Part shown: one piece after another, positions 5,746 through 48,439 of the stretch
Layout of the letters: every line of letters starts with the position of its first letter
How positions within the stretch are numbered: the stretch's first letter is position 1
NCBI RefSeq assembly: GCF_026151205.1
Contig: NC_087082.1
Span: 19,182,494-19,246,493 of the forward strand
DNA: 64,000 bases
Direction: 5' to 3'
DNA from: Bolinopsis microptera
Lineage: Eukaryota > Ctenophora > Tentaculata > Lobata > Bolinopsidae
Notes under the pieces: generated by a model
Told to the model about the DNA's origin: nothing
Databases searched by the model: none
What the model saw: the letters and a program-made list of their open reading frames with translations, nothing else
Made by a program: the position numbers and the translations under genes

Positions 5746-5995
5746 GTAAAGTACGGTCAAGGCGAGTTGACCGTGCTATCTGTATTTTATATTACAGTGC
5801 TAGATCATTGGGCGTTTATGGGCGATACGAGTCTGATTACTTAGGATTTGAAGTAAAAGTTGTCGGATTATTCATTGTGTTGTTTTATAGTTTAATATCT
5901 TGTAACCCTTGTTATCACGCTCGTTTCCATTGTCCAAGCCCTTAATTAAATGCAAATAAACTTCGAACCGGGAAGCAAGTGTCCACTGCTTACAC

Positions 5996-7556
5996 ACGTA
6001 TAGGATCAGGTTGTCCTCAGCCACGTATAGGATCAGGTTGTCCTCAGCCACATATAGGATCAGGTTGTCCTCAGCCACATATAGGATCAGGTTGTCCTCA
6101 GCCACATATAGGATCAGGTTGTCCTCAGCCACGTATAGGATCAGGTTGTCCTCAGCCACGTATTGGATCAGGTTGTCCTCATCCACGTATAGGATCAGGT
6201 TGTCCTCAGCCACGTATAGGATCAGGTTGTCCTCAGCCACGTATAGGATCAGGTTGTCCTCAGCCACATATAGGATCAGGTTGTCCTCAGCCACATATAG
6301 GATCAGGTTGTCCTCAGCCACGTATAGGATCAGGTTGTCCTCAGCCACGTATTGGATCAGGTTGTCCTCATCCACGTATAGGATCAGGTTGTCCTCAGCC
6401 ACGTATAGGATCAGGTTGTCCTCAGCCACGTATAGGATCAGGTTGTCCTCAGCCACATATAGGATCAGGTTGTCCTCAGCCACATATAGGATCAGGTTGT
6501 CCTCAGCCACGTATAGGATCAGGTTGTCCTCAGCCACGTATAGGATCAGGTTGTCCTCAGCCACGTATAGGATCAGGTTGTCCTCAGCCACGTATAGGAT
6601 CAGGTTGTCCTCAGCCACGTATAGGATCAGGTTGTCCTCAGCCACGTATAGGATCAGGTTGTCCTCAGCCACGTATAGGATCAGGTTGTCCTCAGCCACG
6701 TATAGGATCAGGTTGTCCTCAGCCACGTATAGGATCAGGTTGTCCTCAGCCACGTATAGGATCAGGTTGTCCTCAGCCACGTATAGGATCAGGTTGTCCT
6801 CAGCCACGTATAGGATCAGGTTGTCCTCAGCCACATATAGGATCAGGTTGTCCTCAGCCACGTATAGGATCAGGTTGTCCTCAGCCACGTATAGGATCAG
6901 GTTGTCCTCAGCCACGTATAGGATCAGGTTGTCCTCAGCCACGTATAGGATCAGGTTGTCCTCAGCCACGTATAGGATCAGGTTGTCCTCAGCCACGTAT
7001 AGGATCAGGTTGTCCTCAGCCACGTATAGGATCAGGTTGTCCTCAGCCACGTATAGGATCAGGTTGTCCTCAGCCACGTATAGGATCAGGTTGTCCTCAG
7101 CCACGTATAGGATCAGGTTGTCCTCAGCCACGTATAGGATCAGGTTGTCCTCAGCCACGTATAGGATCAGTTTGTCCTCAGCCACGTATAGGATCAGGTT
7201 GTCCTCAGCCACGTATAGGATCAGGTTGTCCTCAGCCACGTATAGGATCAGGTTGTCCTTATCCACATATAGGATCAGGTTGTCCTCAGCCACGTATAGG
7301 ATCAGGTTGTCCTCAGCCACGTATAGGATCAGGTTGTCCTCAGCCACGTATAGGATCAGGTTGTCCTCAGCCACGTATAGGATCAGGTTGTCCTCAGCCA
7401 CGTATAGGATCAGGTTGTCCTTAGCCACGTATAGGATCAGGTTGTCCTCAGCCACGTATAGGATCAGGTTGTCCTCAGCCACGTATAGGATCAGGTTGTC
7501 CTCAGCCACGTATAGGATCAGGTTGTCCTCAGCCACGTATAGGATCAGGTTGTCCT
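5996..7556 (+). repeat. 27-bp tandem array, about 58 copies
   Basis: The unit reads ACGTATAGGATCAGGTTGTC followed by CTCAGCC. About 58 head-to-tail copies run with very few substitutions (A/G in the CATA/CGTA step, occasional TATTGG, one TTAGCC). Because 27 divides by 3, long frames stay open on both strands (RIGSGCPQP, SSATYRIRL and, antisense, AEDNLILYV). None has non-repeat coding sequence attached, so these are by-products of the period. High homogeneity points to recent amplification or gene-conversion-like turnover. Confidence 0.95.
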
Positions 7557-18620: not shown

Positions 18621-18624
18621 TTAA

Positions 18625-18638
18625 CCCATTAGGGACGA
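18625..18638 (+). repeat. piggyBac left terminal inverted repeat
   Basis: CCCATTAGGGACGA, inverted at 26441-26454. It directly follows the TTAA target copy, as expected for this superfamily. Confidence 0.9.
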
Positions 18639-18640
18639 TA

Positions 18641-19296
18641 GGGTCGTTTACGACCCATCTTTCCTAGAGGCTGTAGATGACAAACCAAAATACTTGATTA
18701 CACAAATTTTATGCACGAATGTTCAAAATCTATTGGGCTACATTATTCACTTCGGAATATGGGCCTAATGAGTGACTAACAATTAGATAATTAGGTTAAT
18801 TAGTCGTGATAATTGGAAATTATTCAAATTAACTTCTGGCCTCTATTGGGCCATTAAAACTTCATGAAGGCCATGGGTGCTATGCGAAAAAAGTTGCGGG
18901 CAACGATTTCCTAAAGGTCAGTGAAAAGCCCGTGAAAATCAGATGTTCACAAGCAGAGCTAGATGCTGTGTCCTAACTGCGGTCGCATACGACCCACTCG
19001 TCCGGGTCGTAAACGACCCATTTACAATTATATCAGGTACAGCTCCTGTAAGTATATTAGAAGTTCAATTTTTCGAAGAAATAGTGAAAATCAACGTTTC
19101 CAATCAAGTGGTATCAAAAATATCGAAAATTATTTTATTGGGTCATAAACGACCCACTCGCCTGGACCAGTTTTTACCATAATTTATGCTCTAACGATGA
19201 TGTAACGGTCGAAATATCCTATTATATACGTTATGTACGATTATGATTGTATGTACATTCCAATAAAACATTTTCTTATCGGGTCATTAACGACCC
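18641..19296. promoter_or_regulatory. Five palindromic GGGTCR....YGACCC sites, left subterminal region
   Basis: Sixteen-base sites at 18641, 18980, 19004, 19140 and 19281 (first base each), for example GGGTCGTTTACGACCC. The pair at 18980/19004 is spaced by ACTCGTCC. The same pair and spacer occur inverted at 26285-26324 near the other end. The symmetric placement suggests binding sites for the element's own protein; this is inference. Confidence 0.65.
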
Positions 19297-19719
19297 ATTA
19301 GTATTCACAGTATAAAAACCAATTTAGTATAGTTTCACTTCCATTGTATATCTGTAAAATATATATTCGAACACAATATCTCTTATCTCTGAATCTTTAA
19401 CAGATTATCAGGGAGATACCGTTCTGTGTACATTAGTTCCTGAACTTGTACTGTAGGTTCAAGTTAATGTTTCTCTCTTTGCATTATCATTTATACAAAT
19501 CCTTAAGCTGGGGTTGGATCTCAGAAAAAGTACAGGGGGTTATGGCCCCCGCGAGAGCGCTCGGCAAATATTTACAACTACAAGCCTGATTAATCTAAAA
19601 TATTTTCGTTATTTTCAAAATCGTATCGGTATCATAAGTGAAGTAGAGTCTAGAAACGTCTGTTTTCCGTTTAATGCGTTATTAGGGCGTAATAATATTT
19701 TGATAGCTATCTTTAGATT

Positions 19720-22700
19720 ATGTCTAAAAGACGCAGAGGACACAAGGATAAGGAAGGAACGGTTGTTAAGCCAGGAGATAGGGTATCAGTTCCCCGAGAC
19801 TATTTCGATCGTGAAGAAACCAGTTACTCAGCCACGTTATCCTGTGATATACTTGTGCTATGGGGAAGTATCATCACAATATCAAAATCAAATGGAAGAG
19901 CATACGTAAAATTCGATGTGGATGGCAAAGGGGTTGCCATTCCGGTAGCAGATCTTTCGAAAAGTTTGACCGGTACGATTGATGCAGTAACTGTTGAATC
20001 TACGAAGACTACAGTCAATGTTATAGGAGATGAGGAGCAGACAGACAGTACAGTCCAGGTGATAGGAGATGAGGAACAGACAGACAGTACAGTCCAGGTG
20101 ATAGGAGATGAGGAACAGACAGACAGTACAGTCCAGGTGATAGGAGATGAGGAACAGACAGACAGTACAGTCAAGGTGATAGGAGATGAGGAACAGACAG
20201 ACAGTACAGTCCAGGTGATAGGAGATGAGGAACAGACAGACAGTACAGTCCAGGTGATAGGAGATGAGGAACAGACAGACAGTACAGTCAAGGTGATAGG
20301 AGATGAGGAACAGACAGACAGTACAGTCCAGGTGATAGGAGATGAGGAACAGACAGACAGTACAGTCCAGGTGATAGGAGATGAGGAGCAGACAGACAGT
20401 ACAGTCCAGGTGATAGGAGATGAGGAACAGACAGACAGTACAGTCCAGGTGATAGGAGATGAGGAGCAGACAGACAGTACAGTCCAGGTGATAGGAGATG
20501 AGGAACAGACAGACAGTACAGTCAAGGTGATAGGAGATGAGGAACAGACAGACAGTACAGTCCAGGTGATAGGAGATGAGGAACAGACAGACAGTACAGT
20601 CAAGGTGATAGGAGATGAGGAACAGACAGACAGTACAGTCCAGGTGATAGGAGATGAGGAGCAGACAGACAGTACAGTCAAGGTGATAGGAGATGAGGAA
20701 CAGACAGACAGTACAGTCCAGGTGATAGGAGATGAGGAACAGACAGACAGTACAGTCCAGGTGATAGGAGATGAGGAACAGACAGACAGTACAGTCCAGG
20801 TGATAGGAGATGAGGAGCAGACAGACAGTACAGTCAAGGTGATAGGAGATGAGGAACAGACAGACAGTACAGTCCAGGTGATAGGAGATGAGGAGCAGAC
20901 AGACAGTACAGTCCAGGTGATAGGAGATGAGGAACAGACAGACAGTACAGTCCAGGTGATAGGAGATGAGGAGCAGACAGACAGTACAGTCAAGGTGATA
21001 GGAGATGAGGAACAGACAGACAGTACAGTCCAGGTGATAGGAGATGAGGAACAGACAGACAGTACAGTCCAGGTGATAGGAGATGAGGAACAGACAGACA
21101 GTACAGTCCAGGTGATAGGAGATGAGGAACAGACAGACAGTACAGTCCAGGTGATAGGAGATGAGGAGCAGACAGACAGTACAGTCCAGGTGATAGGAGA
21201 TGAGGAACAGACAGACAGTACAGTCAAGGTGATAGGAGATGAGGAACAGACAGACAGTACAGTCCAGGTGATAGGAGATGAGGAACAGACAGACAGTACA
21301 GTCCAGGTGATAGGAGATGAGGAACAGACAGACAGTACAGTCAAGGTGATAGGAGATGAGGAACAGACAGACAGTACAGTCCAGGTGATAGGAGATGAGG
21401 AGCAGACAGACAGTACAGTCAAGGTGATAGGAGATGAGGAACAGACAGACAGTACAGTCCAGGTGATAGGAGATGAGGAACAGACAGACAGTACAGTCCA
21501 GGTGATAGGAGATGAGGAGCAGACAGACAGTACAGTCCAGGTGATAGGAGATGAGGAACAGACAGACAGTACAGTCAAGGTTATAGGAGATGAGGAACAG
21601 ACAGACAGTACAGTCCAGGTGATAGGAGATGAGGAGCAGACAGACAGTACAGTCCAGGTGATAGGAGATGAGGAACAGACAGACAGTACAGTCAATGTTA
21701 TAGGAGATGAGGAGCAGACAGACAGTACAGTCAAGGTGATAGGAGATGAGGAACAGACAGACAGTACAGTCCAGGTGATAGGAGATGAGGAACAGACAGA
21801 CAGTACAGTCCAGGTGATAGGAGATGAGGAGCAGACAGACAGTACAGTCCAGGTGATAGGAGATGAGGAACAGACAGACAGTACAGTCAAGGTGATAGGA
21901 GATGAGGAACAGACAGACAGTACAGTCCAGGTGATAGGAGATGAGGAGCAGACAGACAGTACAGTCCAGGTGATAGGAGATGAGGAGCAGACAGACAGTA
22001 CAGTCAAGGTGATAGGAGATGAGGAACAGACAGACAGTACAGTCCAGGTGATAGGAGATGAGGAGCAGACAGACAGTACAGTCCAGGTGATAGGAGATGA
22101 GGAACAGACAGACAGTACAGTCAAGGTGATAGGAGATGAGGAACAGACAGACAGTACAGTCCAGGTGATAGGAGATGAGGAACAGACAGACAGTACAGTC
22201 AAGGTGATAGGAGATGAGGAACAGACAGACAGTACAGTCAAGGTGATAGGAGATGAGGAACAGACAGACAGTACAGTCAAGGTGATAGGAGATGAGGAAC
22301 AGACAGACAGTACAGTCCAGGTGATAGGAGATGAGGAGCAGACAGACAGTACAGTCAAGGTGATAGGAGATGAGGAACAGACAGACAGTACAGTCAAGGT
22401 GATAGGAGATGAGGAACAGACAGACAGTACAGTCCAGGTGATAGGAGATGAGGAACAGACAGACAGTACAGTCAAGGTGATAGGAGATGAGGAGCAGACA
22501 GACAGTACAGTCAAGGTGATAGGAGATGAGGAACAGACAGACAGTACAGTCCAGGTGATAGGAGATGAGGAACAGACAGACAGTACAGTCCAGGTGATAG
22601 GAGATGAGGAACAGACAGACAGTACAGTCCAGGTGATAGGAGATGAGGAACAGACAGACAGTACAGTCCAGGTGATAGGAGATGAGGAACAGACAGACAG

Positions 22701-23440
22701 TACAGTCCAGGTGATAGGAGATGAGGAACAGACAGACAGTACAGTCCAGGTGATAGGAGATGAGGAGCAGACAGACAGTACAGTCCAGGTGATAGGAGAT
22801 GAGGAACAGACAGACAGTACAGTCAAGGTGATAGGAGATGAGGAACAGACAGACAGTACAGTCCAGGTGATAGGAGATGAGGAACAGACAGACAGTACAG
22901 TCAATGTTATAGGAGATGAGGAGCAGACAGACAGTACAGTCAAGGTGATAGGAGATGAGGAACAGACAGACAGTACAGTCCAGGTGATAGGAGATGAGGA
23001 ACAGACAGACAGTACAGTCCAGGTGATAGGAGATGAGGAGCAGACAGACAGTACAGTCCAGGTGATAGGAGATGAGGAACAGACAGACAGTACAGTCAAG
23101 GTGATAGGAGATGAGGAACAGACAGACAGTACAGTCCAGGTGATAGGAGATGAGGAGCAGACAGACAGTACAGTCAAGGTGATAGGAGATGAGGAACAGA
23201 CAGACAGTACAGTCCAGGTGATAGGAGATGAGGAACAGACAGACAGTACAGTCCAGGTGATAGGAGATGAGGAACAGACAGACAGTACAGTCCAGGTGAT
23301 AGGAGATGAGGAACAGACAGACAGTACAGTCCAGGTGATAGGAGATGAGGAACAGACAGACAGTACAGTCCAGGTGATGTTGGAGGAGACGGTAGTGACA
23401 GAGAGTACAGTTCACTACACTACTACCCCTTATCCACCAG
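19720..23440 (+). CDS. piggyBac protein exon 1: N-terminal domain + 86 acidic repeats
   Basis: Starts at ATG 19720. Residues 1-100 begin basic (MSKRRRGHKDKE), then give a compact segment (VKPGDRVSVPRDYF ... GRAYVKFDVDGKGVAIPV) that looks like a small beta-barrel; the fold is inferred. Residues 101-1218 are exactly 86 copies of VIGDEEQTDSTV plus Q, K or N. A short tail follows (VMLEETVVTESTVHYTTTPY). The frame ends at a TGA at 23449, but CCACCAG/GTAGGC at 23440/23441 is a good splice donor. The next acceptor, CCTTCAG at 23579, joins it in frame (phase 1) to the transposase. I therefore read it as the first coding exon of the transposase gene. It could also be a separate accessory protein if the intron is retained. 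Confidence 0.72.
20020..23373 (+). repeat. 39-bp coding minisatellite, 86 exact-length copies
   Basis: 3354 bases = 86 x 39. The differences I see fall at a silent GAA/GAG site, a codon that is CAG, AAG or AAT (Gln, Lys or Asn), and a GTG/GTT silent site. No indel or stop occurs. Each unit has four acidic residues. Antisense and alternative frames also stay open because 39 divides by 3, but only the + frame is joined to non-repeat coding sequence on both sides. Confidence 0.96.
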
Positions 23441-23579
23441 GTAGGCCTTGAAAATATATAACGGCTTTGTTTGCAGTAGCACTGTTAATAAATAACTTTG
23501 GCTTGTTCCCATATTACTGGTTTGACTCTTGCCTTGTATATATATTTCGATTCTTGACCTTAATAGAACTAACCTTCAG

Positions 23580-25547
23580 GTATTATCCGGTTAGTGAACA
23601 GCATGTCGAGAAAGTCGCCTAGAGTTGCTGCAGGAAAGACAGCTACTTGCTCTATGTCTGATCCCCCCTCAGTGTCTACTGTTTCATTACCACCAATTAG
23701 TAGAGTCAGCGCCAGGAATAAGAAGAGAGCTAAACTTGAGCCAGCGTTTTTGCCAATACCTAGCAAGAGACCCAGGAAGACCAAAGGAGATAAAGTAAAC
23801 GATGCCGTAAACTACCTTGAAGAAAATCATTGGAGCTCAGCACAGTTATTCATCTGCCCTCCTGCGATCGCAGAGCTGACAGACGAGGACTCAGGTGATG
23901 AAGAATCAAACGGCGGGGGTATCGATAATATGAACACTTGTCAGCTCGAGGCTGGATTTGAACTTGTAATTTTAACGCCCGAAGATGAAGAACTGCGGCT
24001 GACCAACGTTGTGGAAGAAGAGATTGACACGATCATCGAGGAGGTGACAGAGCCAACAGAGCCGACAGAGCGAAGTCAACCGAAGAGAAAGGGGAAGGCT
24101 CCTAAAACTCCGGAAGCTGTTGCTCGAGCTGTTGCTGAGAGAAAGAAAAGGGCCGCAGAAAAAGCAGAACTGGAGCGACAGCAAAAAAGGAACAAGTGGA
24201 AAGAGTCCTATGAGTTCGAAAATTCAGAGCTGCTCTGCAAGATAGCAGAATTCGAATGTCCAACGACAAATCAGGATCCACTGTCCCTGGCAACACTCAG
24301 TCCCATCGAGCTGTTTGAGCTGTTCTTCGACGAAGATGTTGTCACATTCATTTGTCAACAAACTAATCGTTACGCTCTTCAGAAAGGTGCAGACAGGTGG
24401 AATGATGTGGGTATCGAGGAAATGCGGTGCTTCTTTGGGATACTGCTCCTCAGTGGGTACAACCAACTTCCAAGAATGAAAATGTACTGGGAGCAAACAC
24501 AAGATGTTCACAACAACCTAGTGTCCGATGCTATGCGGCGGGATAGGTTTTTGGAGCTGCTGCGGTATATTCACTTTTGTGACAATGCAGTCCTTGATGG
24601 TTCGACAACAGACAGATGTTGGAAGATCCGGCCTATTTACAATATGTTACTGTCAAGGTTCCAGAAGAACGCTGTCCTCACCAAATGTTTCAATGTAGAC
24701 GAATCAATGGTGCAATACTTCGGAAAGTCTGGCAATGCCCTAAAGCAACGCATGCCAATGAAACCGATAAGAAGTGGGTACAAAGTGTGGTCTCTCAACC
24801 TAGACAACGGGTATATGTATAACTGCGAGATATACCAAGGAAAGGGGAGTCAGTCCGATTACCAGGTGGCATTTGGCCATGGACCTGGAGTTGTTCTCGG
24901 GCTAATGGATGATCTCCCCAAGGGAAACTACGAAGTGTACCTTGACAACTTTTTCACTTCAACGAAGTTGTTGTATCATCTCGGAAAAGAAGGTATAGGA
25001 TGCACTGGAACATTTAGTAGGAAAATGATTCAGTTCTGCCCTTTTCCAACCGATAACGAGATGGTGAAGGCTGGGAGAGGTATATTCAAGTCTTTTGTAC
25101 ACACGGACCTGAATATTCAACTCACCAAGTGGCAGGACAATAAACAAGTGATCATCGGCTCAAACTTTGACTGTGACACCCCTGCCGATACCTGTCAAAG
25201 ATGGTCTGCCGAGGAGAAGGAGAGGATTTCTGTTCCCCGACCTAAATCCATCACATCCTATAACACACACATGGGGGGAACTGATAACATGGATCAGGCA
25301 ATAAATGTTTACAGACCTGTCATACGGAACCGGAAATGGTATTGGCCACTCTTCTCGTACATTCTGCAAGTTTCCACGTATAATGCCTGGAAGCTGAGCA
25401 GGTATGCTAATTCTAGCGCCAGCAACACATTCCTCGACTTCATCAGAAGCATCGTCTGCCCCTACCTGACCTTGTACAAGACGACAAGGAAACGCGGAAA
25501 GACGAACAACTTGTACCCCTGTAAAGGAGTTGCAGCTCGGGTTCCTG
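23580..25547 (+). CDS. piggyBac transposase, catalytic exon (DDE)
   Basis: This exon carries the DDE_Tnp_1_7 catalytic domain. A low-complexity linker with a basic segment (QPKRKGKAPKTP) and a Lys/Arg/Glu-rich helix (ERKKRAAEKAELERQQKR) precede it. Then come MRCFFGILLLSGYNQLPRM, FNVDESMVQYFGKSG (first Asp at about 24698), EVYLDNFFTSTKL (second Asp at about 24943) and HMGGTDNMDQAINVYRP (Asp at about 25283 and 25292). These are the conserved acidic residues of piggyBac transposases, which excise at TTAA without footprints. Read alone, the first in-frame ATG is at 23603, but an acceptor at 23579 joins the exon to the repeat exon. The frame runs to 25618, but a donor at 25547/25548 gives a better C-terminus. 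Confidence 0.9.
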
Positions 25548-25672
25548 GTGGGTCTCCATTAAATAATAATCTTAATAAGTGTTGGTCCTTTCCAAATTTG
25601 TTTAACATTTCCGATTAACAGTACATTGCTTGTTATGTTTAATTGACTATTATTTAATTCAAAGACCCCCAG

Positions 25673-25833
25673 AAAGTGTGCGTTACGACGGGATAGGTCA
25701 CGTGATAAAAAGAACGATAGGGAAGAGAACGAGATGTGGTCTATGCAAGAGTAAGACCATTTACGAATGTTCGAAGTGTGCAGTGAAGTTGCATTCAAAC
25801 TGTTTTGCAGCATTCCATGGTAGTGGATCCTAG
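25673..25833 (+). CDS. piggyBac transposase, C-terminal cysteine-rich exon
   Basis: After a 125-bp intron (25548-25672, GTGGGT ... CCCCAG) the frame resumes in phase 1 and reads RVP/ESVRYDGIGHVIKRT, then the zinc-binding finger RTRCGLCKSKTIYECSKC followed by His and Cys in KLHSNC, with a stop at 25831-25833. This C-terminal cysteine-rich finger is standard in piggyBac transposases and binds the transposon ends. The join restores the expected PE.VR.DG.GH sequence across the splice, which is strong support for the intron. Confidence 0.85.
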
Positions 25834-26000
25834 TATGAGACTGGTTAAAATTATGGTCCGACTTCCGAGTGTGTTGTTATTGACCCAGTTTAAATATTTT
25901 GTTAAATTTTAATAACAAGTTTTTATTCTAGTATTACTATTTGACATTTGCGAACGTTTCATAACATTTTTTCTTATCAATTTCTTGACTTTGTCCGAGT

Positions 26001-26324
26001 GGGTCGTTAATGACCCATATGAAATTGATTTTTTAAAATTTCTGGTTGTTTAAGTATGATAATCACTCGCTAAGAAGCGATTCGGTACTTTTGTTTCCTT
26101 TTTTAGACTGTATGCAAGCAGTTACAAGATAATTTATAAAGATTAGCAAGTGTGCCGAGTGGGTCATTAATGACCCAATTTCAGTAATTTTCAATATTTT
26201 GAATCGCACAGTACTAACTATATTCTACATCATTTATTTGTTCCTTACGGCTTTGTTTCACGAGTAATATACGAAAAACAAAGTGGGTCGTTTGCGACCC
26301 GGACGAGTGGGTCGCATGCGACCA
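26001..26324. promoter_or_regulatory. Four palindromic GGGTCR....YGACCC sites, right subterminal region
   Basis: Sites begin at 26001, 26161, 26285 and 26309. The 26285/26309 pair mirrors the left pair at 18980/19004, including the intervening GGACGAGT (its complement on the left is ACTCGTCC). Confidence 0.65.
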
Positions 26325-26440
26325 TCGCTATATCTATGAAAGTAACGGAGATACAGATTAGCTTTTTTGGATATCTCATTTTTGCTGTAAAGTGACCTTG
26401 TGTGTGAAATGGCATTAAAATCGGCAAACTTTAAAACTCG

Positions 26441-26454
26441 TCGTCCCTAATGGG
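26441..26454 (-). repeat. piggyBac right terminal inverted repeat
   Basis: TCGTCCCTAATGGG, inverse of the left end, followed by TTAA. Confidence 0.9.
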
Positions 26455-26458
26455 TTAA

Positions 26459-44303: not shown

Positions 44304-47300
44304 ATTCTGGATATAGTCCAATGCAATAAAGATGCAGATAGTTCCTGCTATTCTGGATACAGTCTCCATGCAATAAAGATGCAGATAGTTCCTGCTACTC
44401 TGGATATAGTCTCCATGCAATAAAGATGCAGATAGTTCCTGCTACTCTGGATATAGTCTCCATGCAATAAAGATGCAGATAGTTCCTGCTACTCTGGATA
44501 TAGTCTCCATGCAATAAAGATGCAGATAGTTCCTGCTACTCTGGATATAGTCTCCATGCAATAAAGATGCAGATAGTTCCTGCTATTCTGGATATAGTCT
44601 CCATGCAATAAAGATGCAGATAGTTCCTGCTATTCTGGATATAGTCTCCATGCAATAAAGATGCAGATAGTTCCTGCTACTCTGGATATAGTCTCCATGC
44701 AATAAAGATGCAGATAGTTCCTGCTACTCTGGATATAGTCTCCATGCAATAAAGATGCAGATAGTTCCTGCTACTCTGGATATAGTCTCCATGCAATAAA
44801 GATGCAGATAGTTCCTGCTACTCTGGATATAGTCTCCATGCAATAAAGATGCAGATAGTTCCTGCTATTCTGGATACAGTCTCCATGCAATAAAGATGCA
44901 GATAGTTCCTGCTACTCTGGATATAGTCCAATGCAATAAAGATGCAGATAGTTCCTGCTATTCTGGATATAGTCTCCATGCAATAAAGATGCAGATAGTT
45001 CCTGCTATTCTGGATACAGTCTCCATGCAATAAAGATGCAGATAGTTCCTGCTATTCTGGATATAGTCTCCATGCAATAAAGATGCAGATAGTTCCTGCT
45101 ATTCTGGATATAGTCTCCATGCAATAAAGATGCAAATAGTTCCTGCTACTCTGGATATAGTCCAATGCAATAAAGATGCAGATAGTTCCTGCTATTCTGG
45201 ATATAGTCCAATGCAATAAAGATGCAGATAGTTCCTGCTATTCTGGATATAGTCTCCATGCAATAAAGATGCAGATAGTTCCTGCTATTCTGGATATAGT
45301 CTCCATGCAATAAAGATGCAAATAGTTCCTGCTACTCTGGATATAGTCTCCATGCAATAAAGATGCAGATAGTTCCTGCTATTCTGGATACAGTCTCCAT
45401 GCAATAAAGATGCAGATAGTTCCTGCTACTCTGGATACAGTCTCCATGCAATAAAGATGCAGATAGTTCCTGCTACTCTGGATATAGTCTCCATGCAATA
45501 AAGATGCAGATAGTTCCTGCTACTCTGGATATAGTCTCCATGCAATAAAGATGCAGATAGTTCCTGCTACTCTGGATATAGTCTCCATGCAATAAAGATG
45601 CAGATAGTTCCTGCTATTCTGGATATAGTCTCCATGCAATAAAGATGCAGATAGTTCCTGCTACTCTGGATATAGTCTCCATGCAATAAAGATGCAGATA
45701 GTTCCTGCTATTCTGGATATAGTCTCCATGCAATAAAGATGCAGATAGTTCCTGCTACTCTGGATATAGTCTCCATGCAATAAAGATGCAGATAGTTCCT
45801 GCTACTCTGGATATAGTCTCCATGCAATAAAGATGCAGATAGTTCCTGCTACTCTGGATATAGTCTCCATGCAATAAAGATGCAGATAGTTCCTGCTATT
45901 CTGGATATAGTCTCCATGCAATAAAGATGCAGATAGTTCCTGCTACTCTGGATATAGTCTCCATGCAATAAAGATGCAGATAGTTCCTGCTACTCTGGAT
46001 ATAGTCTCCATGCAATAAAGATGCAGATAGTTCCTGCTATTCTGGATATAGTCTCCATGCAATAAAGATGCAGATAGTTCCTGCTACTCTGGATATAGTC
46101 TCCATGCAATAAAGATGCAGATAGTTCCTGCTACTCTGGATATAGTCTCCATGCAATAAAGATGCAGATAGTTCCTGCTACTCTGGATATAGTCTCCATG
46201 CAATAAAGATGCAGATAGTTCCTGCTACTCTGGATATAGTCTCCACGCAATAAAGATGCAGATAGTTCCTGCTACTCTGGATATAGTCTCCATGCAATAA
46301 AGATGCAGATAGTTCCTGCTACTCTGGATATAGTCTCCATGCAATAAAGATGCAGATAGTTCCTGCTACTCTGGATATAGTCTCCATGCAATAAAGATGC
46401 AGATAGTTCCTGCTACTCTGGATATAGTCTCCATGCAATAAAGATGCAGATAGTTCCTGCTACTCTGGATATAGTCTCCACGCAATAAAGATGCAGATAG
46501 TTCCTGCTACTCTGGATATAGTCTCCACGCAATAAAGATGCAGATAGTTCCTGCTACTCTGGATATAGTCTCCATGCAATAAAGATGCAGATAGTTCCTG
46601 CTATTCTGGATATAGTCTCCACGCAATAAAGATGCAGATAGTTCCTGCTACTCTGGATATAGTCTCCATGCAATAAAGATGCAGATAGTTCCTGCTATTC
46701 TGGATATAGTCTCCATGCAATAAAGATGCAGATAGTTCCTGCTATTCTGGATATAGTCTCCATGCAATAAAGATGCAGATAGTTCCTGCTACTCTGGATA
46801 TAGTCTCCATGCAATAAAGATGCAGATAGTTCCTGCTACTCTGGATATAGTCTCCATGCAATAAAGATGCAGATAGTTCCTGCTACTCTGGATATAGTCT
46901 CCATGCAATAAAGATGCAGATAGTTCCTGCTACTCTGGATATAGTCTCCATGCAATAAAGATGCAGATAGTTCCTGCTACTCTGGATATAGTCTCCATGC
47001 AATAAAGATGCAGATAGTTCCTGCTACTCTGGATACAGTCTCCATGCAATAAAGATGCAGATAGTTCCTGCTACTCTGGATATAGTCTCCATGCAATAAA
47101 GATGCAGATAGTTCCTGCTACTCTGGATATAGTCTCCATGCAATAAAGATGCAGATAGTTCCTGCTACTCTGGATATAGTCTCCATGCAATAAAGATGCA
47201 GATAGTTCCTGCTACTCTGGATATAGTCTCCATGCAATAAAGATGCAGATAGTTCCTGCTATTCTGGATACAGTCTCCATGCAATAAAGATGCAGATAGT

Positions 47301-48439
47301 TCCTGCTACTCTGGATATAGTCTCCATGCAATAAAGATGCAGATAGTTCCTGCTATTCTGGATACAGTCTCCATGCAATAAAGATGCAGATAGTTCCTGC
47401 TATTCTGGATACAGTCTCCATGCAATAAAGATGCAGATAGTTCCTGCTACTCTGGATATAGTCTCCATGCAATAAAGATGCAGATAGTTCCTGCTACTCT
47501 GGATATAGTCTCCATGCAATAAAGATGCAGATAGTTCCTGCTACTCTGGATATAGTCTCCATGCAATAAAGATGCAGATAGTTCCTGCTATTCTGGATAC
47601 AGTCTCCATGCAATAAAGATGCAGATAGTTCCTGCTACTCTGGATATAGTCTCCATGCAATAAAGATGCAGATAGTTCCTGCTATTCTGGATATAGTCTC
47701 CATGCAATAAAGATGCAGATAGTTCCTGCTATTCTGGATATAGTCTCCATGCAATAAAGATGCAGATAGTTCCTGCTACTCTGGATATAGTCTCCATGCA
47801 ATAAAGATGCAGATAGTTCCTGCTACTCTGGATATAGTCTCCATGCAATAAAGATGCAGATAGTTCCTGCTATTCTGGATACAGTCTCCATGCAATAAAG
47901 ATGCAGATAGTTCCTGCTACTCTGGATATAGTCTCCATGCAATAAAGATGCAGATAGTTCCTGCTACTCTGGATATAGTCTCCATGCAATAAAGATGCAG
48001 ATAGTTCCTGCTACTCTGGATATAGTCTCCATGCAATAAAGATGCAGATAGTTCCTGCTACTCTGGATACAGTCTCCATGCAATAAAGATGCAGATAGTT
48101 CCTGCTACTCTGGATATAGTCTCCATGCAATAAAGATGCAGATAGTTCCTGCTACTCTGGATATAGTCTCCATGCAATAAAGATGCAGATAGTTCCTGCT
48201 ATTCTGGATACAGTCTCCATGCAATAAAGATGCAGATAGTTCCTGCTACTCTGGATATAGTCTCCATGCAATAAAGATGCAGATAGTTCCTGCTACTCTG
48301 GATATAGTCTCCATGCAATAAAGATGCAGATAGTTCCTGCTACTCTGGATATAGTCTCCATGCAATAAAGATGCAGATAGTTCCTGCTATTCTGGATATA
48401 GTCTCCATGCAATAAAGATGCAGATAGTTCCTGCTACTC
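44304..48439 (+). repeat. 47-bp satellite array, about 88 copies
   Basis: The unit reads TCTCCATGCAATAAAGATGC, AGATAGTTCCTGCTACTCTG, GATATAG. Variation is limited to a few positions (CTACTC/CTATTC, GATATAG/GATACAG, CATG/CACG, a TCCAATG variant mainly near the start). Each + strand unit contains AATAAA. The period is not a multiple of 3, so no long frame is conserved. It lies directly downstream of the last recognised OATP exon. Confidence 0.96.

What the first reader, a model, noticed from the sequence alone, without database searches (positions are those of the whole stretch)
18625..26454. piggyBac transposase apparently spliced to an exon with 86 acidic 13-residue repeats
The element is bounded by TTAA and 14-bp inverted ends and encodes a normal DDE transposase with its C-terminal finger. 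A 1243-codon frame upstream ends at a good donor (CAG/GTAGGC at 23440). An acceptor at 23579 joins it in phase 1 to the transposase with no stop. The predicted protein is about 1950 residues, with an 1118-residue repeat segment of strong negative charge between a small N-terminal domain and the catalytic core. I know of no described piggyBac protein with such an insertion.
Basis: partly seen in the sequence, partly recalled or inferred. Interest (0 to 1): 0.82.

Follow-up and report, generated by a model that had tools for sequence, protein, structure and literature searches.

The report
Transposase carrying a length-variable acidic arm
A mobile DNA element in this animal genome appears to make its cutting enzyme with a long, acidic, repeat-built arm whose length differs from copy to copy, and other transposon families in the same genome carry arms built on a similar plan.

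Summary
The window holds a piggyBac element (18621-26458, TTAA plus 14-bp ends). Its first exon carries 86 in-frame 39-bp units, and predicted splice sites join it in phase to a DDD transposase (predicted 1949 residues; array charge -318).

Own-genome copies test the model. Three further full-length copies keep both introns and the ends but have 14, 30 and 12 units; a fragment has 1. The array is thus a fast-changing coding minisatellite, and 86 is an extreme. Exon 2 is clearly constrained. The 99-residue N-terminal domain leans the same way without significance (P 0.08 and 0.053). The array shows no such constraint.

A second piggyBac family (32-40% identical) has small domain, 13-residue repeats, core and finger in one intronless frame. 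An unrelated ORF family has a Tudor-like domain predicted to splice in phase to 36-44 acidic 9-residue repeats. Domains and repeats show no detectable homology between families.

Best reading: a spliced fusion transposase with a length-polymorphic acidic tether, tolerated and perhaps regulatory. No transcripts were available, and minisatellites are common in this genome. New variant of a known kind.

The parts
18621..18638 (+). left end: TTAA target site plus 14-bp terminal inverted repeat
26441..26458 (-). right end: 14-bp terminal inverted repeat plus TTAA
18641..18656 (.). 16-bp palindrome GGGTCGTTTACGACCC, likely protein-binding site (inferred)
   Evidence: 13 strand matches in the window, 0.00 expected
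19004..19019 (.). 16-bp palindrome, same type
19140..19155 (.). 16-bp palindrome, same type
19281..19296 (.). 16-bp palindrome, same type
26001..26016 (.). 16-bp palindrome, same type
26161..26176 (.). 16-bp palindrome, same type
26285..26300 (.). 16-bp near-palindrome, same type (matched on the + strand only)
19720..20016 (+). exon 1, N-terminal domain (99 codons)
   Evidence: 3 nonsynonymous of 7 changes among 5 copies, 4 of 297 sites variable among 4 copies; no family match above cut-off
20017..23370 (+). exon 1, coding minisatellite, 86 units of 39 bp / 13 residues
23371..23440 (+). exon 1, tail after the array, ends in phase 1 at the donor
23441..23579 (+). predicted intron 1 (GTAGGC ... 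CTTCAG)
   Evidence: kept in 4 of 4 full copies
23580..25547 (+). exon 2: transposase with DDD core; possible internal start ATG at 23603
25548..25672 (+). predicted intron 2 (GTGGGT ... CCCCAG)
25673..25833 (+). exon 3: C-terminal cysteine finger and stop

Best explanation
The element is a recently mobile piggyBac transposon. Its transcript is spliced so that a small N-terminal domain (99 residues) is joined, through a coding minisatellite of 13-residue acidic units (12 to 86 in full copies), to an otherwise ordinary DDD transposase with a C-terminal finger. Shown: the ends, the open frames, the copies, the kept splice sites, the variation in unit number and constraint on exon 2. Inferred: that splicing happens; that the N-terminal domain is a selected fold; and that the array grows and shrinks by slippage or unequal exchange and is tolerated because it lies in the arm outside the catalytic fold. 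Most likely mode of action (inferred): the array is a flexible, strongly negative tether that holds the N-terminal domain away from the core and damps non-specific DNA contact, an exaggerated form of the acidic, disordered N-terminal region that tunes T. ni piggyBac.
For: Intron 1 and 2 boundaries are kept in 4 of 4 full copies. Exon 2 is constrained: 24/1945 variable sites against 71/1977 non-coding (P 1e-6), 10 nonsynonymous of 24 changes (neutral 75%, P 0.0004); the domain leans the same way: 4/297 sites (P 0.053), 3 of 7 (P 0.08). A second family reads domain, repeats, core and finger in one frame. An unrelated family has a predicted phase-1 domain-to-array join in two near-identical loci. 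Array length differs at each of five loci: 86, 14, 30, 12, 1. The T. ni N-terminal region is acidic and disordered and affects mainly excision (PMC9499001, abstract and passages); its phosphorylation inhibits (PMC11707139, passages).
Against: No transcripts. The in-frame join alone is weak (4 of 16 pairings). Tail (3/70) and exon 3 (7/159) vary at the non-coding rate. Array variants look neutral: 15 nonsynonymous of 19 against 77% expected. The domain has no family, PDB or usable structure match. Minisatellites are common in this genome.
Confidence: 0.65

Rival explanations
1. Two proteins: exon 1 is a separate protein (domain plus acidic repeats, stop three codons past the donor), and the transposase starts at ATG 23603 from its own transcript.
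For: The exon-1 frame closes at TGA 23449 and an ATG with A at -3 opens the transposase frame at 23603. The tail next to the donor varies at the non-coding rate.
Against: Donor and acceptor are kept in 4 of 4 copies, and the second family has the fusion in one frame.
Confidence: 0.2
2. The fusion is real but the array has no function: a by-product of a genome prone to minisatellites, kept only where it is in frame and in a linker. (Compatible with the fusion; a rival to the tether role only.)
For: Unit variants look neutral (15 of 19, family 1; 16 of 26, family 2). Three other arrays of 12 or more units lie in the 64-kb window, and at least one of four 7-kb samples had a large one. The full-length C12 copy has only 12 units.
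Against: Net-acidic N-terminal arrays recur in several transposon-like families in this genome.
Confidence: 0.5
3. The array acts as DNA, for example as an enhancer or binding-site array, and its open frame is incidental.
For: Daphnia Pokey piggyBac elements carry copy-variable repeats 5' of the transposase, for which a role in transcription was proposed (PMC3849761, passages).
Against: The arrays are open without stop or frameshift in 143 units at five loci, though a 39-bp period makes this easy; two antisense frames are open as well. The candidate binding sites are palindromes near the ends, not in the array.
Confidence: 0.08

Closest known systems
T. ni piggyBac and piggyBat transposases
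   Same: DDD core aligned to both solved structures, TTAA target, C-terminal cysteine finger; an N-terminal region described as acidic, disordered and regulatory
   Different: Their N-terminal region is about 100 residues (T. ni) and has no repeat array; here it is predicted at 300 to over 1200 residues with 12-86 units
Pokey piggyBac elements of Daphnia
   Same: TTAA target and a spliced intron in the transposase gene; copy-variable repeats 5' of the core (PMC3849761, passages)
   Different: Pokey repeats are about 200 and 50 bp, 2-5 copies, rDNA-derived and in the 5' non-coding region
Lancelet PGBD5
   Same: Tandem repeats overlapping exons of a piggyBac-derived gene (PMC3902484, passages)
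   Different: A domesticated gene with few copies of 60- and 108-bp repeats that include splice sites
Mouse LINE-1 ORF1 length polymorphism region
   Same: In-frame repeats change the length of a protein of a mobile element between families (PMC3600994, passages)
   Different: A retrotransposon; one to four repeats of 42 or 66 bp in a coiled coil

Membership tests
piggyBac superfamily | DDE_Tnp_1_7 catalytic domain | tested here: met
   Pfam 1.2e-80, 271.8 bits against cut-off 22.4
piggyBac superfamily | Catalytic aspartates aligned to solved transposases | tested here: met
   NVDES, YLDNFF and GGTDNMDQ align with the aspartate motifs of 6x67 and 9c0f (which residues are catalytic is recalled)
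piggyBac superfamily | TTAA target duplication and short inverted ends starting CCC | tested here: met
   4 of 4 full copies end in TTAA in different flanks
piggyBac superfamily | C-terminal cysteine-rich finger | tested here: inconclusive
   Cysteine/histidine pattern present; best Pfam match C1_2 is 5.9e-5 but below its cut-off
Tudor / SH3-like reader domain (N-terminal domain of this element) | Significant profile or fold match | tested here: not met
   No SH3 or Tudor match for this domain even below cut-off; no PDB sequence match; model pLDDT 41, not searched
Tudor / SH3-like reader domain (N-terminal domains of the other families) | Significant profile match | tested here: inconclusive
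   All below cut-off: C5/C2 family DUF4537 0.0015 and Tudor_3 0.044; family 2 Hsr-9 Tudor 0.086; family 3 KOW6_SPT5 0.022

The most novel reading that the evidence does not exclude
Several unrelated cut-and-paste transposases in one animal genome have converged on the same N-terminal design: a small, chromatin-reader-like domain tethered by a net-acidic coding minisatellite of rapidly changing length. Tether length sets activity or target choice, so each copy is a length variant on which selection can act, and the domain exon can be exchanged between families (as may have happened at C10, where this element's exon 1 lies in phase before another family's acidic array).
Probability: 0.25. Interest if true: 0.82.

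Novelty: new variant of a known kind. Interest (0 to 1): 0.64.

Why it matters
piggyBac N-terminal regions are described as disordered, poorly conserved and regulatory, by a mechanism that is not settled (PMC9499001, PMC11707139). Here one genome supplies nearly identical transposase cores behind arms of 12, 14, 30 and 86 repeats. That makes the role of arm length and charge directly testable. If the design is convergent, it points to a general way in which transposons tune themselves and shows coding minisatellites at work inside mobile enzymes.

Tried and rejected
Homology between the two piggyBac families' 39-bp units: cyclic identity 18 of 39 bases (shuffles average 18.2), protein score 7 (shuffles 7.8). 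Not supported; the shared 13-residue period is coincidence or convergence.

Homology of the N-terminal domains: families 1-2 and 1-3 score no better than shuffles; 2-3 was reached by 68 of 1000 shuffles. Profile comparison of family 1 with family 3 plus the C6 relic gave P 0.073; the two others gave 0.42 and 0.26. Not shown.

Structure: the single-sequence model was too poor (pLDDT 41), so I ran no fold search.

Relatives elsewhere: viral contigs gave none for core or domain. I did not scan genome contigs (prokaryotes). No eukaryotic genome other than the window's own was open to me.

Constraint on the array: none seen in family 1 (15 nonsynonymous of 19 distinct variants), at most weak in family 2 (16 of 26).

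C10 exon swap: the in-phase join is weak evidence, since 4 of 15 AGs tested give an open join.

Literature: ten searches, seen as listings; passages of eight papers, one with its abstract and outline. None of what I saw described a repeat array in the protein of a mobile piggyBac element. The library is open-access only; Repbase was not searched.

Full report
Observation. The element at 18621-26458 is bounded by TTAA and 14 identical inverted bases. The exon-1 frame (ATG 19720, TGA 23449) holds 99 codons of non-repetitive sequence, exactly 86 units of 39 bp and a 70-nt tail that ends at CAG|GTAGGC. Joining 19720-23440, 23580-25547 and 25673-25833 gives 1949 residues. Residues 100-1217 are the array, with net charge -318. 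The core matches Pfam DDE_Tnp_1_7 at 1.2e-80 and the solved piggyBat and T. ni piggyBac transposases, with the aspartate motifs aligned. Seven sites of the form GGGTCRTNNRYGACCC lie near the ends: 13 strand matches in the window, all in the element, with 0.00 expected. The three other full copies have 7, 7 and 5, and 6 of 8 other elements with these ends that I read have 3-5. I take them for protein-binding sites (inference).

Copies in the same genome. A protein search with the domain found 5 loci; one with the core found 24 matches, of which 4 are near-identical full cores. The four full elements (C11, which is the window, C3, C9 and C12) have 86, 14, 30 and 12 units. The C10 fragment has 1 and no recognisable element ends. 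The four keep donor, acceptor and both introns (intron 1 139-141 bp) and end in TTAA in different flanks. Exons 1 and 2 are open in all four, and the finger is in frame. The stop codon itself was confirmed only in the window copy.

Constraint. Variable sites among the four copies are: 5' part 44/1099, intron 1 6/139, intron 2 6/115, 3' part 15/624, exon 2 24/1945, domain 4/297, tail 3/70, exon 3 7/159. Against pooled non-coding sites (71/1977), exon 2 is clearly slower (P 1e-6) and the domain suggestively so (P 0.053). Tail and exon 3 are not slower, which counts against my reading of those parts. Nonsynonymous changes are 10 of 24 in exon 2 (neutral 75%, P 0.0004) and, with C10 added, 3 of 7 in the domain (neutral 74%, P 0.08). 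Distinct unit variants in the five arrays are 15 nonsynonymous of 19, as expected under neutrality; no stop or frameshift occurs in 143 units, but few would be expected. A search for 30 bases of the unit (up to 1 mismatch) gave 87 forward and 52 reverse matches. The 100 printed lie in known copies, and the totals do not exceed what those copies hold.

Mobility. The 18-base end (up to 1 mismatch) occurs 184 + 197 times, against none for the backward control. Among the places printed, pairs about 241 bp and about 2.66 kb apart recur. Two elements of the 2.7-kb class that I read have no frame over 110 codons. The family has thus been mobilised widely.

A second piggyBac family. Eight loci (C2, C4, two on C6, C8, C10, and two duplicated loci on C5) match the window's core at 32-40% identity. 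Their small domain (MANTQLHQDHKFDVGDLVYKEWG...) is followed by 10-21 units of RVAEAERVLEEQK (TRF), then core and finger. The C2 copy has these in one frame of 1085 codons, but its first codon is not ATG. One C6 copy starts at ATG (883 codons) but lacks about 420 and 30 bp of what the others have; other copies are interrupted. TTAA is intact at both ends in 3 of 6 loci examined. Between a diverged locus (C8:7848820) and this family the domain differs by 9 nonsynonymous and 7 synonymous changes (ratio about 0.4, P 0.065). This intronless relative is the best comparative support for the window's splice.

Wider pattern. A third piggyBac family (C8:8075072) has an N-terminal domain and no repeat array. 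A stretch 28% identical to that domain (E 0.006) lies 5' of a further piggyBac relic on C6. An unrelated multi-copy ORF family has no Pfam or NCBIfam match; I take it for another transposase family (recalled motif, not tested). Its C5 and C2 loci, 559 of 560 bases identical over the stretch compared, have two small exons reading MWCPGLQVLANPFQDKLYYKATIVKRVR|EGVFSLQFESENKSRNVSAKFMKLLILGV, then a phase-1 junction to 44 or 36 units of SEDTVVAAG (net charge -90 and -74) and the body. That domain's best Pfam hits are DUF4537, Tudor_3 and other SH3/Tudor models, all under their cut-offs. A related pair has 21-residue repeats in an upstream frame; its join to the body was not tested. At C10 the window family's exon 1 with one unit lies before this family's acidic 9-residue array. 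Both boundaries are phase 1 and the join is open for 983 residues. Since 4 of 15 AGs tested would do the same, this is a lead only.

Controls and cautions. Minisatellites are common here: the window has three other arrays of 12 or more units, and at least one of four 7-kb samples at round coordinates had a large one (the output was cut). Repeats and domains show no detectable homology between families. The window family's own domain gave no Tudor or SH3 hit. Convergence is therefore possible but not shown; mutational bias plus tolerance in a linker may suffice.

Mechanism. Published work describes the T. ni N-terminal region as acidic and disordered, and its loss as lowering transposition, mainly at excision (PMC9499001, abstract and passages). 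Phosphorylation of this region is inhibitory (PMC11707139, passages). A long acidic arm would be expected to act on DNA contact or to give reach to the N-terminal domain (inference). The array has no S/T-x-x-D/E site, so its charge is built in. I hold the spliced fusion at about two in three and the convergent, selected design at about one in four.

Novelty. Searches (listings) and passages of the closest papers showed no mobile piggyBac protein with such an arm. The nearest are Pokey's non-coding 5' repeats, lancelet PGBD5 repeats and the mouse L1 ORF1 length polymorphism. The library is open-access only, so this is no proof of absence.

Noticed in passing
L028-L035 (C6, C2, C8, C6, C10, C4, C5, C5): A second piggyBac family with small N-terminal domain, 10-21 repeats of 13 residues and transposase in one frame; the copies are damaged in different ways.
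   Followed up: partly
L039, L040, L041: Stretches with long arrays of the second family's 39-bp unit (up to about 34 copies by TRF) and no transposase core match there.
   Followed up: no
L049/L051 (C5) and L055 (C2): Unrelated ORF family: Tudor-like domain in two exons, predicted phase-1 splice to 44 or 36 acidic 9-residue units, then the body; the two loci are nearly identical outside the array.
   Followed up: partly
L019:2194-5479: Exon 1 of the window's family (one unit) lies in phase before another family's 9-residue acidic array: possible exon swap.
   Followed up: partly
L052 and L056: A further pair of related loci with 21-residue in-frame repeats, at least 7 and about 2.5 copies.
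   Followed up: no
L037, L038, L053: Third piggyBac family with an N-terminal domain but no repeat array, and a weakly similar stretch before another piggyBac relic.
   Followed up: partly
window 25673-25833: Exon 3, the C-terminal finger, varies among the four copies at the non-coding rate (7 of 159 sites).
   Followed up: no
window 5995-7556 and 44306-48439: Two other large minisatellites, 27 bp x 58 and 47 bp x 88; the first lies 5' of a frame that looks like a reverse transcriptase (recalled motif).
   Followed up: no
window 19824-23411 and 19888-23484, minus strand: Two antisense frames of about 1195 codons stay open through the array, a by-product of the 39-bp period.
   Followed up: no
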